Below are positions 10 to 38,169 of a stretch of 50,464 nt of DNA, piece after piece (positions within the stretch are counted from its first letter, which is position 1; every line of letters starts with the position of its first letter). A program made the translations under genes and the position numbers. Source of the DNA: Nitrobacter sp. 62-23 (GTDB taxonomy: Bacteria > Pseudomonadota > Alphaproteobacteria > Rhizobiales > Xanthobacteraceae); assembly GCF_001897285.1 (NCBI RefSeq), contig NZ_MKSM01000006.1, forward strand, positions 1-50,464. Direction: 5' to 3'. The notes under the pieces were generated by a model. It was not told the origin of the DNA and did not search any database. It worked only from the letters and a program-made list of their open reading frames with translations.

Positions 10-63
10 CGATAGCGCTTTCGAGCGAAGTGGGTACCGGTTCGCGTCCAGAAAACGCGTCAA
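10..63. repeat. F-family palindromic repeat (copy 1)
   Basis: This is an imperfect palindrome with arms of the type GCGCTTTCGAGCG and AAAACGCG around a GGTACCGGTTCGCG centre. Related copies in either orientation lie near 20301-20350, 25247-25321, 26810-26888 and 29879-29931. It is noncoding and resembles the short dispersed palindromes common in this bacterial group. Apart from a candidate promoter near position 360, I see nothing else supportable between here and the first gene at 529. Confidence 0.6.
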
Positions 64-353
64 ATTAAAATCATAGAGCCCCGCTTCTGATTCCGCGTGA
101 TCGGGCGTCGGCGTCAGGGACGATTTTTGTAAGACGGAGCGCTGGCGCAAAAATACGCAAAATAAAAGACCAGCTTTCGCCGGTCCGATCTCGTCTCGAT
201 TCCAATGTCGTCTCAAGCCGTAGGGTGAGGCTGTCGTCCCCTGCGATGAGGCCCGATCCTGACAACTCCGGGGGGCTGGGGGCTGAGGATCCGGTGCCGA
301 AAGAATCGGGCCATCGCAGAGCTGTTTGTTTCTCAATCCAGCGGGGCGGTTGC

Positions 354-380
354 TTGACGGAAATTGGGCTGCATTATGAT
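354..380 (+). promoter_or_regulatory. Candidate sigma-70 promoter for the DUF2794 gene
   Basis: A -35-like TTGACG (354-359) and a -10-like TATGAT (375-380) are separated by 15 nt, or 16 nt if CTTGAC is taken as the -35. They lie about 150 bp upstream of the start at 529. The hexamers are good but the spacing is slightly short, so this is a sequence-only guess. Confidence 0.35.
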
Positions 381-528
381 TTTTGATCACGGATCTGGTG
401 ATGACTGGCCGTCGCTCCGGCGCGGCTTTGCGGGACGGTTCCAGTTCGGTCTGTCGGAGGCACCCGCAAGCCTCTTGCGGTGAGGCCCATCCGGGGCGAT
501 CATGTCGTTGACCTGACAGGAGGCGCCG

Positions 529-3558: not shown

Positions 3559-3726
3559 CAAGTGTTCCGATTCCGGAGTTCGCCTGCCCTTCACACAACC
3601 TCCGACGCAAACTTCGAAATCAAAGGGGCACGAGCAACTTTATGAATTCGGTGCGGGTTGGTTTCAGTTCGCTTTGACGGATTAGCCAAGACTGATGGAG
3701 CGAACTTCCGAACGAACCTCCACACT
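3559..3726 (+). repeat. Two-hairpin CTAG element, unit 2 (decayed copy)
   Basis: A degenerate copy of the composite repeat also seen at 38004-38169 and, split, at 29942-30274. Hairpin C runs from about 3559 to 3632 (TTCCGATTCCGGAGTTCGCC at left; a partly mutated right arm ending AATCAAAGGGGCACGAG). The linker CAACTTTATGA follows, then hairpin D to the CTAG at 3723-3726 (GTTCGCTTTGACGG at left, GAGCGAACTTCCGAACGAAC at right). Several stem pairs are broken, so this looks like an old insertion. It occupies the 450-bp gap between the divergent glycosyltransferase and exporter genes. Confidence 0.8.
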
Positions 3727-3855
3727 AGGCGGTCAATGCAACGAAGTTTCTGCGCATTGACGGCTTTTCTGAGGGTCTTGTGGGGCGGCTGGATCCAAGG
3801 CGACGTCGCCATCCGGTCAACTTCAATCAACTTCAAAGCGGCACGGTGGGAACGC

Positions 3856-20248: not shown

Positions 20249-20350
20249 AGAGTCTTTCACCATTTCATGGCAACCGTGAAAGACTCTGGCATCTTGATTT
20301 AACGCGTTTTCTTCACGCGAGCCGGTATCCACTCCGCTCGAAAACGCCCT
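20249..20350. repeat. E hairpin joined to F palindrome (unoccupied arrangement)
   Basis: E is a hairpin with perfect 12-bp arms AGAGTCTTTCAC (20249-20260) and GTGAAAGACTCT (20276-20287). It is followed directly by GGCATCTTGATTTAACGCG and the F palindrome (AACGCGTTTTCTTCACGCG ... GCTCGAAAACGC). The same E-then-F order occurs at 25025-25321, but there unit 1 lies between them, so this copy shows the site before insertion. The right end reaches the radC stop codon at 20349. Confidence 0.75.
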
Positions 20351-21059
20351 ACATCAGCCGCAAGCCTTTCAGGCTGGCGTGGCCGTTCTTGCCGACGATG
20401 ATGTGGTCGTGCACGGAAATCCCAAGCGGCGCGGCGATATCGACGATCGCCTTGGTCATCTGGATGTCGGCCTGTGACGGCGTGGGATCGCCGGACGGAT
20501 GGTTGTGGACCAGGATGATCGCGGTCGCCGACAGCTCGAGTGCGCGCTTGACGACCTCGCGCGGATAGACCGGCGTGTGATCGACGGTGCCGACCTGCTG
20601 CAATTCGTCCGCGATGAGCTGGTTGCGCTTGTCGAGGAACAGAATACGGAACTGCTCCTTGTCGGCGAACGCCATCGAGGTCCGGCAATAGTCGATCACC
20701 GCGGTCCATGACGACAGCATGGTCCGCTGCTTCAGTTGTCCCTTGGCCACGCGGTTGGCGGTTGCCGCGATCAGCTTGATCTCGATGATCGCTGCCTCCC
20801 CGAGCCCGCTGATTTCGCGGAGCCGGGCGTCGGGCGCATGAACCACTTCGGCGAACGACCCGAACCTGCCGATCAGGGTCTTGGCCAGCGGCTTGACGTC
20901 CCGGCGCGGCAGTGCGCGGAACAGCACCATTTCGAGCAGCTCGTAGTCGCTGAGCGCATCCGGTCCCGCGTCGCGAAATCGCTCCCGCAGCCGCTCGCGA
21001 TGGCCGTGGTAATGCGGCGCTTCGGCAAATCCTGGGGGGCTCTTGGCGTCTGCGGGCAT
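20349..21059 (-). CDS. radC: RadC family JAB/MPN-type protein
   Basis: A 236-residue member of the RadC (UPF0758) family. The N-terminal region (about 20-110) holds a helix-hairpin-helix-like part ([28 protein letters not shown], and [11 protein letters not shown]). The C-terminal JAB1/MPN domain has the metal motif [14 protein letters not shown] (about residues 185-198) with an upstream Glu, as in JAMM proteases. The historical name suggests DNA repair, but the role is not established. It lies 126 bp downstream of map on the same strand, an arrangement common in alphaproteobacteria. Its stop codon lies at the edge of the F palindrome. Confidence 0.88.
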
Positions 21060-24161: not shown

Positions 24162-24186
24162 CCGCTAGGTGGTGGTGACGATTTAA

Positions 24187-24947
24187 CTATCTGAGCCATA
24201 TTGCGATTGCGGCGAGTTTGACGAAGCTCATGAAGTTGACGAGGAGCTTGTCGTACCGGGTTGCGACACGCCTGAACTGTTTGAGCTTGGCGAAGAAGCG
24301 CTCGATGCGGTTGCGCTCCTTGTAGAGATCGACGTCGTAGGTTCGTTGGACCTTTCGGTTGCGCTTGGGCGGGATAACGACCTCGGTGCCGGCTTCGGCG
24401 ATCCTGTTTGCGAGGTGATCGGCGTCGTATCCCTTGTCGGCGATGGCGACATCGGCCTTGATGCCGTCAATGAGGTCGTGGGCGAAGGCGATGTCGTTGC
24501 GCTGGCCGGGCGAGGCGATTAAGCGAATGGGGAGGCCAAGCGCCTCAGTGGCGGCGTGGATCTTGGTGCTCAGGCCGCCGCGAGACCGGCCAAGGCCCTG
24601 GGCATCCGCCCCCCTTTGACCTTGCGCGCTCCGGCGGCGTGCTGATGAGCGCGAACGATGGTCGAGTCGATCATCAGCCATTCCAGATCGGCTTCGCGGG
24701 CAAGCCTGGCCAGCATGTCGTCCAGAACGCCCATTTCGATCCAGCGATAGTAGCGCCGCTTTACCGAGCGGTAGTCGCCAAGCCGCTCCGGCAGATCGCG
24801 CCAGCGGCCACCAGAACGCGCCATCCATAGCAGCGCGTCGAGGAGCTTGCGGTTATTCGTGCGCGGACCGCGCTTGCCCTTCGTACCGCCCGGCACAAAA
24901 CTCTTGATCCGCTCCCACTGGTCGTCACGAAGCGCATCGCAGTCCAT
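24187..24947 (-). CDS. IS5-family transposase OrfAB, -1 frameshift
   Basis: A transposase of about 253 residues made from two frames. OrfA (24570-24947, 125 residues if unshifted) carries the DUF4096-type N-terminus (DDQWERIKSFVPGG) and the first catalytic Asp (LMIDSTIVRAHQHAAG). After slipping back one base at AAAGGGGGG the chain continues GADAQGLGRSRGGLSTKIHA. It then supplies the second Asp (IADKGYDADH) and the Glu (ERNRIERFFAKLK) of the DDE triad, with the terminus FVKLAAIAIWLR at 24187. The frame of OrfB is open further upstream to 24828, but that part is a shadow of OrfA. No stop or deletion breaks either frame, so it is probably functional. Confidence 0.9.
24609..24617 (-). other. Slippery sequence for programmed -1 frameshift
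   Basis: On the minus strand AAAGGGGGG (24609-24617) lies where OrfA and OrfB of the transposase must be joined. A six-G run after A's is a typical slip site for IS5-family -1 frameshifting. OrfA alone would end soon after at 24570. Confidence 0.75.
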
Positions 24948-25024
24948 CGCCGATCTCCAAAATCAGCGTTGAATCTGATTTGCTCTGCAAAGGGAATCCC
25001 TGTTCCTTAAATCGTCACCACCAC

Positions 25025-25067
25025 CTAGAGTCTTTCACCGTTTCAGGGAAACAGTGAAAGACTCTAG
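25025..25067. repeat. E hairpin (copy next to the IS element)
   Basis: CTAGAGTCTTTCACCGTTTC at the left and GAAACAGTGAAAGACTCTAG at the right form a near-perfect stem with a 3-nt loop, with CTAG at both ends. It is closely related to the stem at 20249-20287. The left CTAG is also the target of the IS element and the right CTAG is shared with unit 1. Confidence 0.8.
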
Positions 25068-25234
25068 TGGAGTGAATTTGACATTCGCTACCCACTTTGC
25101 AGCGAACGTGTCAGGCGAATGTCAAATTCAAAACTCCACTAGAAACCTGATAGTTGCTAGTGGTCCTTTGATTCTAACATTTGCAAGAACTCCCTGCCGC
25201 AACGGGATGCAAATGTTAGAATTTGGACCACTAG
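25064..25234 (+). repeat. Two-hairpin CTAG element, unit 1 (copy 1)
   Basis: 171 bp. Hairpin A (25064-25142) has arms GAATTTGACATTCGC and GCGAATGTCAAATTC. The 14-nt linker AAACCTGATAGTTG follows (25143-25156), then hairpin B (25157-25234) with arms CTAACATTTGCA-type TTCTAACATTTGCA and TGCAAATGTTAGAA. CTAG bounds every module. The second copy at 30031-30200 is nearly identical. It separates E from F, which are adjacent at 20249-20350. Confidence 0.88.
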
Positions 25235-29863: not shown

Positions 29864-29878
29864 GACCGGCGATTCTAT

Positions 29879-29931
29879 AGAGCATTTTCCGGCGAAGTGG
29901 ATACCGGTTCGCCGCAAGAAAATGCGACCAG
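29879..29931. repeat. F palindrome (copy beside mepA)
   Basis: AGAGCATTTTCCGGCGAAGTGG at left and GCCGCAAGAAAATGC at right around GATACCGGTTC, the reverse-oriented F type with a TATAGAGC edge as at 1-63. It overlaps the upstream region of mepA and is followed 10 bp later by the unit 2/unit 1 nest. Confidence 0.6.
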
Positions 29932-29941
29932 ACAATAACTG

Positions 29942-30274
29942 CTAGTGTCCCGATTCCGAAGTTCGCATACCCTTGCCGCAACCCTTGATGCGAACTTCGG
30001 AATCAAAGGGACACTAGCAACTTTATGATTCTAGTGGAGTGAATTTGACATTCGCTACCCACTTTGCAGCGAACTTGTCAGGCGAATGTCAAATTCAAAA
30101 CTCCACTACAAACCTGATAGTTGCTAGTGGTCCTTTGATTCTAACATTTGCAAGAACTCCCTGCGGCAACGGGATGCAAATGTTAGAATTGGACCACTAG
30201 TGTGGTTTGGGTTCAGAAGTTCGCTTGACGGACTCGATGGGGCAATGAAGCGAACTTCTGAACCACCACACTAG
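29942..30274 (+). repeat. Unit 2 two-hairpin element interrupted by unit 1
   Basis: Order: hairpin C (29942-30017; arms CCGAAGTTCGCA and TGCGAACTTCGG), linker CAACTTTATGATT (30018-30030), then a unit 1 copy (30031-30200), then hairpin D (30197-30274; arms GTTCAGAAGTTCGCTT and AAGCGAACTTCTGAAC). In the uninterrupted unit 2 at 38004-38169 the linker is followed directly by D at one CTAG. Here CTAG occurs on both sides of unit 1, which marks an insertion with target duplication. The whole gap 29932-30410 holds no gene. Confidence 0.88.
30031..30200 (+). repeat. Two-hairpin CTAG element, unit 1 (copy 2, nested)
   Basis: A second copy of unit 1, nearly base-for-base the same as 25064-25234. Hairpin A occupies 30031-30109 (its right end reads CTAC instead of CTAG), the linker AAACCTGATAGTTG 30110-30123, and hairpin B 30124-30200. 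The near identity of the two copies suggests recent mobility, unlike the decayed unit 2 at 3559-3726. Confidence 0.88.
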
Positions 30275-38003: not shown

Positions 38004-38169
38004 CTAGTGTGGTAGTTCAGAAGTTCGCTTCAGTGCCCGATCAAGTCCGTCAAGCGAACTTCTGAACCTAAACCACACTAGGATCATAAAGTTGCTAGCG
38101 TCCCTTTGATTCCGAAGTTCGCATCAGAGGTTGCTGCAAGGTATACGAACTTCGGAATCGGGACACTGA
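38004..38169 (-). repeat. Two-hairpin CTAG element, unit 2 (intact copy)
   Basis: 166 bp, read as C-linker-D on the minus strand. Hairpin D (38004-38081) has arms GTTCAGAAGTTCGCTT and AAGCGAACTTCTGAAC. The linker on the plus strand is GATCATAAAGTTG (38082-38094). Hairpin C (38095-38169) has arms CCGAAGTTCGCA-type TTCCGAAGTTCGCA and a partly mutated right arm, and its far end is CTGA instead of CTAG. This is the uninterrupted reference for the split copy at 29942-30274. Apart from this repeat the 344-bp gap before pckA holds no gene I can support. Confidence 0.88.

What the first reader, a model, noticed from the sequence alone, without database searches (positions are those of the whole stretch)
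29942..30274. A family of composite two-hairpin elements with CTAG-bounded modules and covarying stems
Seen: unit 1 (25064-25234, 30031-30200) and unit 2 (3559-3726, 29942-30274 split, 38004-38169) have the same plan: hairpin, CTAG, 13-14 nt linker, CTAG, hairpin. Read unit 1 in reverse complement and the parts line up in order: B with C, linker with linker (both start CAACT), A with D. The stems differ but stay paired: B has CTAACATTTGCA/TGCAAATGTTAG and C has CCGAAGTTCGCA/TGCGAACTTCGG, with five changed positions all compensated. A and D show the same for about six positions. Both keep the one-sided bulge (TTTGATTC on one arm only). Within each unit the two hairpins share a core (ACATTYGC in unit 1, AAGTTCGC in unit 2). 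Inference: structure is maintained and both hairpins of a unit are recognised by one factor, which co-evolves. I know of no described element with this plan, but I could not search.
Basis: partly seen in the sequence, partly recalled or inferred. Interest (0 to 1): 0.85.

Follow-up and report, generated by a model that had tools for sequence, protein, structure and literature searches.

The report
Mobile double-hairpin DNA element of Alphaproteobacteria
A 120-170-base piece of DNA made of two hairpins has spread dozens of times into CTAG sites of this genome and is found in many relatives without carrying any gene, and its hairpin ends change in matched pairs, as if the element picks its insertion sites by base pairing.

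Summary
Units 1 and 2 are two subtypes of one non-coding, multicopy, mobile element: hairpin, CTAG, short linker, CTAG, hairpin. The loci held from the own genome give 48 distinct full unit-1 sequences (43 at least 94% like the consensus); 15 near-full unit-2 matches were found. Copies are bounded by CTAG; one relative keeps an empty site with a single CTAG. A covariance model finds the element in 14 of 210 sampled alphaproteobacterial genomes, own included, with a 121-bp short-loop form in one. Pairing covaries strongly (33-36 of 48 pairs change on both sides; 0 of 500 shuffles). Recent resident copies decay equally in stems and loops, so pairing seems needed for mobility rather than for the host. 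New here: outer tetranucleotides that differ from CTAG match the complement of the inner tetranucleotide of the same hairpin far more often than chance (23 ends; 0 of 10,000 permutations), and left and right ends vary independently. That favours structure-directed insertion with guide-like pairing over a simple target-duplicating MITE. No moving enzyme was found: no Y1/RAYT domain in the own genome, no element with matching ends among the IS5 and IS630 elements examined. Closest known: REPIN/BIME, double-foot REPs and RIME.

The parts
30031..30200 (+). Unit 1, copy 1: hairpin A 30031-30109, linker 30110-30123, hairpin B 30124-30200; inserted in unit 2
25064..25234 (+). Unit 1, copy 2: hairpin A 25064-25142, linker 25143-25156, hairpin B 25157-25234
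29942..30030 (-). Unit 2, copy split by unit 1: hairpin C 29942-30017 and linker 30018-30030
30197..30274 (-). Unit 2, split copy, second part: hairpin D
38004..38169 (+). Unit 2, intact copy: hairpin D 38004-38081, linker 38082-38094, hairpin C 38095-38169 (right CTAG changed to CTGA)
3559..3728 (-). Unit 2, degenerate old copy

Best explanation
It is a non-autonomous mobile DNA element (a double-hairpin element) that carries no gene and is moved in trans. Shown: multicopy, recent spread, precise insertion at CTAG, paired hairpins kept across the mobile lineages but not in recent resident copies, and outer and inner tetranucleotides of a hairpin that co-vary by exact complementarity, independently at the two ends. 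Inferred: an enzyme that recognises the folded hairpin cuts at the outer tetranucleotide, and the inner tetranucleotide acts as a guide that pairs with, and so selects, the cleavage or target site. This works like the guide:cleavage-site pairing of IS200/IS605 elements and the foot of REP sequences. The enzyme is unidentified; it need not be a Y1 HUH enzyme. Because the two hairpins are inverted, the two strands are equivalent, which would fit the absence of orientation bias.
For: Mobility: 41 matches over at least 159 of 170 bases of unit 1 in the own genome (40 of 87 candidates scored, so a lower bound); 29 of the 30 copies printed with flanks have CTAG at both ends, in flanks that are mostly unrelated, some of them other repeats; 48 distinct full sequences in the loci held, 43 at least 94% identical to the consensus. 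Empty sites: of 10 insertion sites asked in 8 congeneric genomes, 5 gave a match running across the junction; one (in G001) reads a single CTAG exactly at the joint, one has CTAG with poorly aligned neighbours in G001, one has CTGG in two genomes, two are diverged at the joint. The nested insertion in the window shows the same on a paralogue. Structure: 95.7% of cells paired, 36 of 48 pairs with double changes, 0/500 shuffles, slid controls 28-43% paired; 98.3%, 33 of 48, 0/500 in the other set. Role in mobility: in 43 recent copies private substitutions are as frequent in paired (43 at 98 sites) as in unpaired sites (24 at 63 sites), while variants shared by 4 or more copies fall at 2 of 100 paired and 7 of 70 unpaired sites (small numbers). 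Guide-like pairing: among 168 copies with both hairpins resolved (of 187 distinct), 43 left and 26 right outer tetranucleotides are not CTAG; 14 and 9 are the exact complement of their inner tetranucleotide, against permutation means of 1.6 and 0.5 (3.5 and 1.5 when only non-CTAG inner ones are shuffled), 0 of 10,000 each. Of the 21 copies concerned, 0 have equal left and right tetranucleotides.
Against: No enzyme found: PF01797 (Y1) has no match at E <= 0.001 in the own genome and in 7 of 8 congeners, although all 9 carry the element. Four of five Y1 loci looked at, in three element-bearing relatives, have their own GTAG-type repeats, and R1 finds no unit at any of the 16 Y1 loci. No replication-strand bias, unlike IS200/605, unless the strands are equivalent. 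The permutations treat copies as independent; relatedness was not corrected for. The left-unequal-right result is partly imposed: 12 of the 21 copies come from loci of a scan that demanded CTAG at one end; the other 9 do not, but two of those (L088, L142) are partly deleted copies. 13 left and 8 right ends have a changed outer and an intact inner CTAG, as decay would give. No empty site was available for a variant end, so it is not shown that the variant tetranucleotide was in the host before insertion. Variant hairpins are not significantly less damaged than others (no stem mismatch in 63% of 27, against 47% of 66 and 47% of 235; P 0.20 and 0.40).
Confidence: 0.5

Rival explanations
1. An ordinary MITE: a deletion derivative moved by a DDE transposase of the IS5/IS427 or IS630 type that targets CTAG (TA or CTAG duplication), the hairpins being paired transposase-binding sites.
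For: The own genome has IS5-family and IS630 elements with perfect or near-perfect inverted ends inserted at C-TA-G, one of them at window 24165-25028, separated from unit 1 only by a small CTAG-bounded hairpin. The filled site has CTAG at both ends and the empty site one CTAG. No strand bias. No Y1 gene found in the genome.
Against: No element with matching ends among the IS5 and IS630 elements examined and none convincing in about 2.1 Mb held; other transposase families were not searched. The first bases of left and right end differ (TGGAGT and TGGTCC) yet match inside each hairpin. A target duplication does not make outer and inner tetranucleotides co-vary, and predicts equal left and right ends; 0 of 21 variant-ended copies have them.
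Confidence: 0.3
2. Host-beneficial structured RNA or terminator module spread by selection: hairpins act downstream of stop codons.
For: 102 of 272 CTAG ends sit on a TAG that closes an open frame of 90 codons, against 42 and 54 in the other frames; CTAG sites outside units 145 of 527. Strong folds.
Against: Recent resident copies change stems as fast as loops; precise recent insertions in different places; no Rfam match in the units at the gathering threshold. The position at stop codons may follow from CTAG being rare and an insertion being harmless there.
Confidence: 0.07
3. Apparent covariation is made by mutation, not selection: template switching in quasi-palindromes copies one arm onto the other.
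For: Few one-sided intermediates between lineages.
Against: In 43 recent copies 66 one-sided changes and 1 two-sided change, so arm-copying is rare in residence; the one-sided bulge on the inner arm persists in the aligned lineages.
Confidence: 0.08

Closest known systems
BIME / REPIN (REP doublets) with RAYT (TnpA-REP)
   Same: Two palindromes in inverted orientation with a short linker; non-coding, multicopy, moved in trans; tetranucleotide foot at each palindrome. Seen: passages of PMC8266576 and PMC6006769; abstract, passages and two sections of PMC3733652.
   Different: Foot is CTAG on both sides of each hairpin, not GTAG; hairpins about 75 bp, not 20-50; no Y1 gene found in the own genome.
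Double-foot REP sequences of TnpA-REP subclass 2.4 (PMC6006769, passages)
   Same: A foot tetranucleotide and its reverse complement close one hairpin, as here for CTAG/CTAG, CCAG/CTGG, CTCG/CGAG.
   Different: Described there with GT[AG]G / C[TC]AC and a Y1 gene, abundant in Cyanobacteria and Bacteroidetes; single hairpins.
IS200/IS605 guide: cleavage-site pairing (PMC8266576, passages)
   Same: Element-borne tetranucleotide selects the cleavage or target tetranucleotide by pairing; changing it re-targets the element.
   Different: Encodes its own Y1 enzyme, strand-specific; the guide lies 5' to each palindrome; hairpins in direct orientation (recalled).
RIME1 / RIME2 of Rhizobium (Osteras 1995; paper not held; abstract recalled)
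   Same: 108-109 bp with two large palindromes, intergenic, multicopy, same order of bacteria.
   Different: Model R1 finds nothing in 300 kb of S. meliloti pSymB and NGR234 pNGR234b although two 108-113 bp double palindromes, probably RIMEs, are there with other stems and ends.
Double-hairpin elements of fungal mitochondria (Paquin 2000, as cited in PMC2800124; passages of the latter seen)
   Same: Mobile pairs of hairpins; no gene mentioned.
   Different: Mitochondrial; no sequence comparison done; flanking duplications reported absent.

Membership tests
GTAG REP / BIME / REPIN with RAYT | two palindromes, inverted, short linker | tested here: met
   bulge on inner arm of both hairpins, 13-14 nt linker
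GTAG REP / BIME / REPIN with RAYT | GTAG (or GGAG) foot, 20-50 nt palindromes | tested here: not met
   outer foot CTAG at 125 left and 142 right ends of 168 copies; hairpins about 75 nt (about 50 nt in the short form)
GTAG REP / BIME / REPIN with RAYT | cognate Y1 (RAYT) gene in the genome, flanked by the repeats | tested here: not met
   (a gene lost in an assembly gap cannot be excluded)
IS200/IS605-type transposition | guide tetranucleotide pairs with the cleavage or target tetranucleotide | tested here: inconclusive
   outer and inner tetranucleotides co-vary by complementarity; empty sites of variants not available
IS200/IS605-type transposition | orientation bias with the replication fork | tested here: not met
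   tallied by hand from a capped list: G005 3+/2- and 8+/4-, G003 7+/5- and 13+/6-, G032 contig 1 10+/6-; origin placed roughly from sampled GC skew
MITE of an IS5 or IS630 element | inverted ends shared with an autonomous element | tested here: not met
   only IS5-type (PF01609) and IS630 (PF13358) elements of the own genome and the loci held were looked at
MITE of an IS5 or IS630 element | target-site duplication | tested here: inconclusive
   one CTAG before, two after; left and right tetranucleotides differ in all 21 variant-ended copies
RIME | sequence of RIME1/RIME2 | tested here: inconclusive
   no match of R1; identity of the double palindromes as RIME inferred from length and host only
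CGTC REP | CGTC foot, 8-9 bp stem, 4-5 nt loop (PMC3733652 section 6) | tested here: not met

The most novel reading that the evidence does not exclude
A widespread family of gene-less double-hairpin elements in Alphaproteobacteria is inserted by an enzyme of an undescribed kind that reads the hairpin and takes its target tetranucleotide from an element-borne inner tetranucleotide, so that the target is re-programmed naturally by changing four bases (CTAG to CCAG, CTCG, CGAG, GTAG, TTAG and others).
Probability: 0.3. Interest if true: 0.85.

Novelty: new variant of a known kind. Interest (0 to 1): 0.62.

Why it matters
If right, this is an abundant class of small mobile DNA in Alphaproteobacteria, not matched in Rfam and not described in the paper listings and passages seen here, with natural guide and target variants that make the pairing rule directly testable, and a missing enzyme to find. 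It also gives a case in which hairpin pairing is conserved for transposition and lost in resident copies.

Tried and rejected
Y1/RAYT mobilisation: PF01797 has no match at E <= 0.001 in the own genome; 4 of 5 Y1 loci looked at in relatives carry their own GTAG-type repeats. IS630 partner: the two with readable ends begin TAGAGC, not TAGTGG. IS5 partner: PF01609 gave 5 places in the own genome; ends differ where readable. An IS427-like element (ends GGGTCCGTACTCAAT) sits at CTAGs of some units but has other ends (plasmid searches found nothing). Other transposase families were not searched. Recurrent neighbouring gene: the largest cluster among 5172 frames of the loci used is ABC ATPases, 15 loci. 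Ends of units flanking a gene: none convincing. G.T against A.C mismatches as a sign of RNA: 22 and 23 in 46 pairs, but resident decay alone gives this, so no conclusion. Age test of variant ends: not significant. Plasmid empty site for L142: none. One pattern search was wasted by a pattern one base too long. Paper searches; none described this element in the listings or passages seen; most subscription papers are not held, so the element may be in print elsewhere.

Full report
What was checked. Units 1 and 2 fold as single strands into two hairpins each (z -10.7 and -11.1). Window 29942-30274 is a unit 2 into which unit 1 has been inserted at the CTAG between linker and hairpin D: taking unit 1 out leaves 167 bp, 156 of 167 identical without gaps to intact unit-2 copies elsewhere in the genome. 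Some of the CTAGs that the scheme implies are changed in single copies (CTAC at the inner left of 30031-30200, CTGA at the right end of the 38004 copy), and the copy at 3559 is old and degenerate.

Copies in the genome. Unit 1 has 41 matches over at least 159 of its 170 bases in the own genome (3.79 Mb in 142 contigs, 40 of 87 candidates scored). A pattern for its outer arm gives 127 matches against 0 for the reversed pattern. From the loci held, 48 distinct full sequences were taken; 43 are at least 94% identical to the consensus. Unit 2 has 15 matches over more than 160 of 169 bases at 73% identity or more, besides the split copy, weaker matches and solitary hairpins. A third subtype with the same plan but other stems is present (L057, L058). 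In 29 of 30 unit-1 copies printed with flanks both ends are exactly CTAG; the flanks are mostly unrelated, though some copies sit in or beside other repeats.

Distribution. A BLAST search with unit 1 hits 15 of 61 genomes, own included: all 9 of the genus and 6 other genera of the family. Plasmid records of Aminobacter, Martelella, Agrobacterium, Rhizobium, Ochrobactrum, Bradyrhizobium, Roseibium/Labrenzia, Sphingobium and Sphingopyxis carry it, some only in part. A covariance model R1 built from 32 sequences finds it in 14 of 210 genomes drawn from the class, the own one included (strict filters, so a lower bound); one genome has a 121-bp form with loops of about 4 nt. The genus of the window is probably Nitrobacter: a Nitrobacter MAG carries a full unit of this kind (L285), and the contig length of G005 equals the size I recall for N. 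winogradskyi; no call names it.

Structure. RNAalifold on the 32 sequences gives two hairpins with 48 pairs. 95.7% of cells pair, 36 of 48 pairs have two-sided changes, and none of 500 shuffles reaches any of the five measures. In 69 matches from other genomes, aligned to the model, the figures are 98.3% and 33 of 48 (one locus is counted on both strands, and an alignment fitted to the model leans towards it). One pair shows AU, CG, UA and GC forms. In the sequences read, the inner arm carries about 3-5 extra bases between the two stem parts, the outer arm 0-1. The linker, 12-14 nt in most, keeps A-A-T-C-A...TTG.

Insertion. Ten insertion sites of the own genome were joined without the element and sought in 8 congeners. 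Five gave matches across the joint. One (G001) shows a single CTAG with matching neighbours on both sides; one shows CTAG in G001 with poor neighbours and is diverged in four other genomes; one shows CTGG in two genomes; two are diverged. So a site with one CTAG becomes CTAG-166 bp-CTAG. Of 272 CTAG ends tested, 102 lie on a TAG that closes a 90-codon open frame, against 42 and 54 in the other frames; for CTAG sites outside units it is 145 of 527. The element often stands right behind a gene and leaves its stop codon intact, as in annotated plasmid cases.

What the hairpins are for. In the 43 recent copies, private substitutions are as frequent in paired as in unpaired sites (43 at 98 sites and 24 at 63), but variants that were passed on (shared by at least 4 copies) lie at 2 of 100 paired and 7 of 70 unpaired sites. 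Resident copies are thus free to lose pairing, while lineages that keep moving are not. That points to mobility, not to a host function. The numbers of shared sites are small.

The ends. Copies exist whose outer tetranucleotide is not CTAG while the inner one of the same hairpin is its exact complement: CCAG/CTGG, CTGG/CCAG, CTCG/CGAG, CGAG/CTCG, GTAG/CTAC, CTAC/GTAG, TTAG/CTAA, CAAG/CTTG, CCAA/TTGG, CCGG/CCGG. Of 187 distinct copies, 168 have both hairpins resolved. There, 14 of 43 changed left ends and 9 of 26 changed right ends are exact complements; permutations give means of 1.6 and 0.5 (3.5 and 1.5 in the harsher shuffle) and never reach the observed value in 10,000 (relatedness of copies not corrected for). 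13 left and 8 right ends have a changed outer and an intact inner CTAG, as decay gives. In the 21 copies with a complementary variant end, left and right tetranucleotides are never equal; 12 of the 21 come from loci of the scan that required CTAG at one end, 9 do not (two of these are partly deleted copies). A simple 4-bp target duplication explains neither fact. Pairing between an element-borne tetranucleotide and the cleavage or target tetranucleotide does, as in IS200/IS605 (passages of PMC8266576). In the own genome 36 of 48 unit-1 copies have CTAG at all four places and one old copy has a complementary variant.

What moves it. Not found. No Y1 domain at E <= 0.001 in the own genome; 4 of 5 Y1 loci looked at in three element-bearing relatives have their own GTAG-type repeats. 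IS630 and IS5-family elements in the genome also sit at CTAG, but their ends differ; other transposase families were not searched. Copies show no bias with replication direction in three genomes (tallied by hand from a capped list), with the origin placed roughly from sampled GC skew; since the unit is built symmetrically, this does not exclude single-strand transposition. No recurrent transposase-like neighbour gene was seen.

Comparison. In plan the unit is like a BIME or REPIN, and each hairpin like a double-foot REP, but the foot, the size and the missing Y1 gene set it apart. Two double palindromes of 108-113 bp in Sinorhizobium plasmids, probably RIMEs, have other stems and are not hit by R1. 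I therefore call it a new variant of the known kind 'mobile palindrome doublet', and leave open that the mechanism is new.

Noticed in passing
window 24165-25028: IS5-family element (DUF4096 and DDE_Tnp_1 frames) with perfect 18-bp inverted ends inside CTAG; it abuts, through a 43-bp CTAG-bounded hairpin (25025-25067), the unit 1 at 25064.
   Followed up: partly
window 14-78, 20284-20351, 29878-29926: GAGC... palindromic repeats whose ends resemble, by eye, the inverted ends of IS630 elements of the same genome (L105, L108): possibly IS630-type MITEs.
   Followed up: no
window 164-402, minus strand: BjrC174 sRNA family match.
   Followed up: no
L379 43393-43500; L378 25546-25658: Double palindromes of 108 and 113 bp in NGR234 and S. 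meliloti plasmids, probably RIME1 and RIME2; the second begins with the GAGCGGGATG end of IS630-type repeats.
   Followed up: partly
L365 11-336 and 2321-2485: Tandem units sharing one CTAG at one side, and another unit at the other side, of a gene that looks like an Hsp70 chaperone (label from memory).
   Followed up: partly
L234, L269, L277, L311, L326: Single hairpins made of the left arm of one hairpin and the right arm of the other: internal deletions between the shared cores.
   Followed up: no
L094, L101, L103, L098: Y1 genes of RAYT size with GTAG-type inverted repeats beside them in relatives.
   Followed up: no
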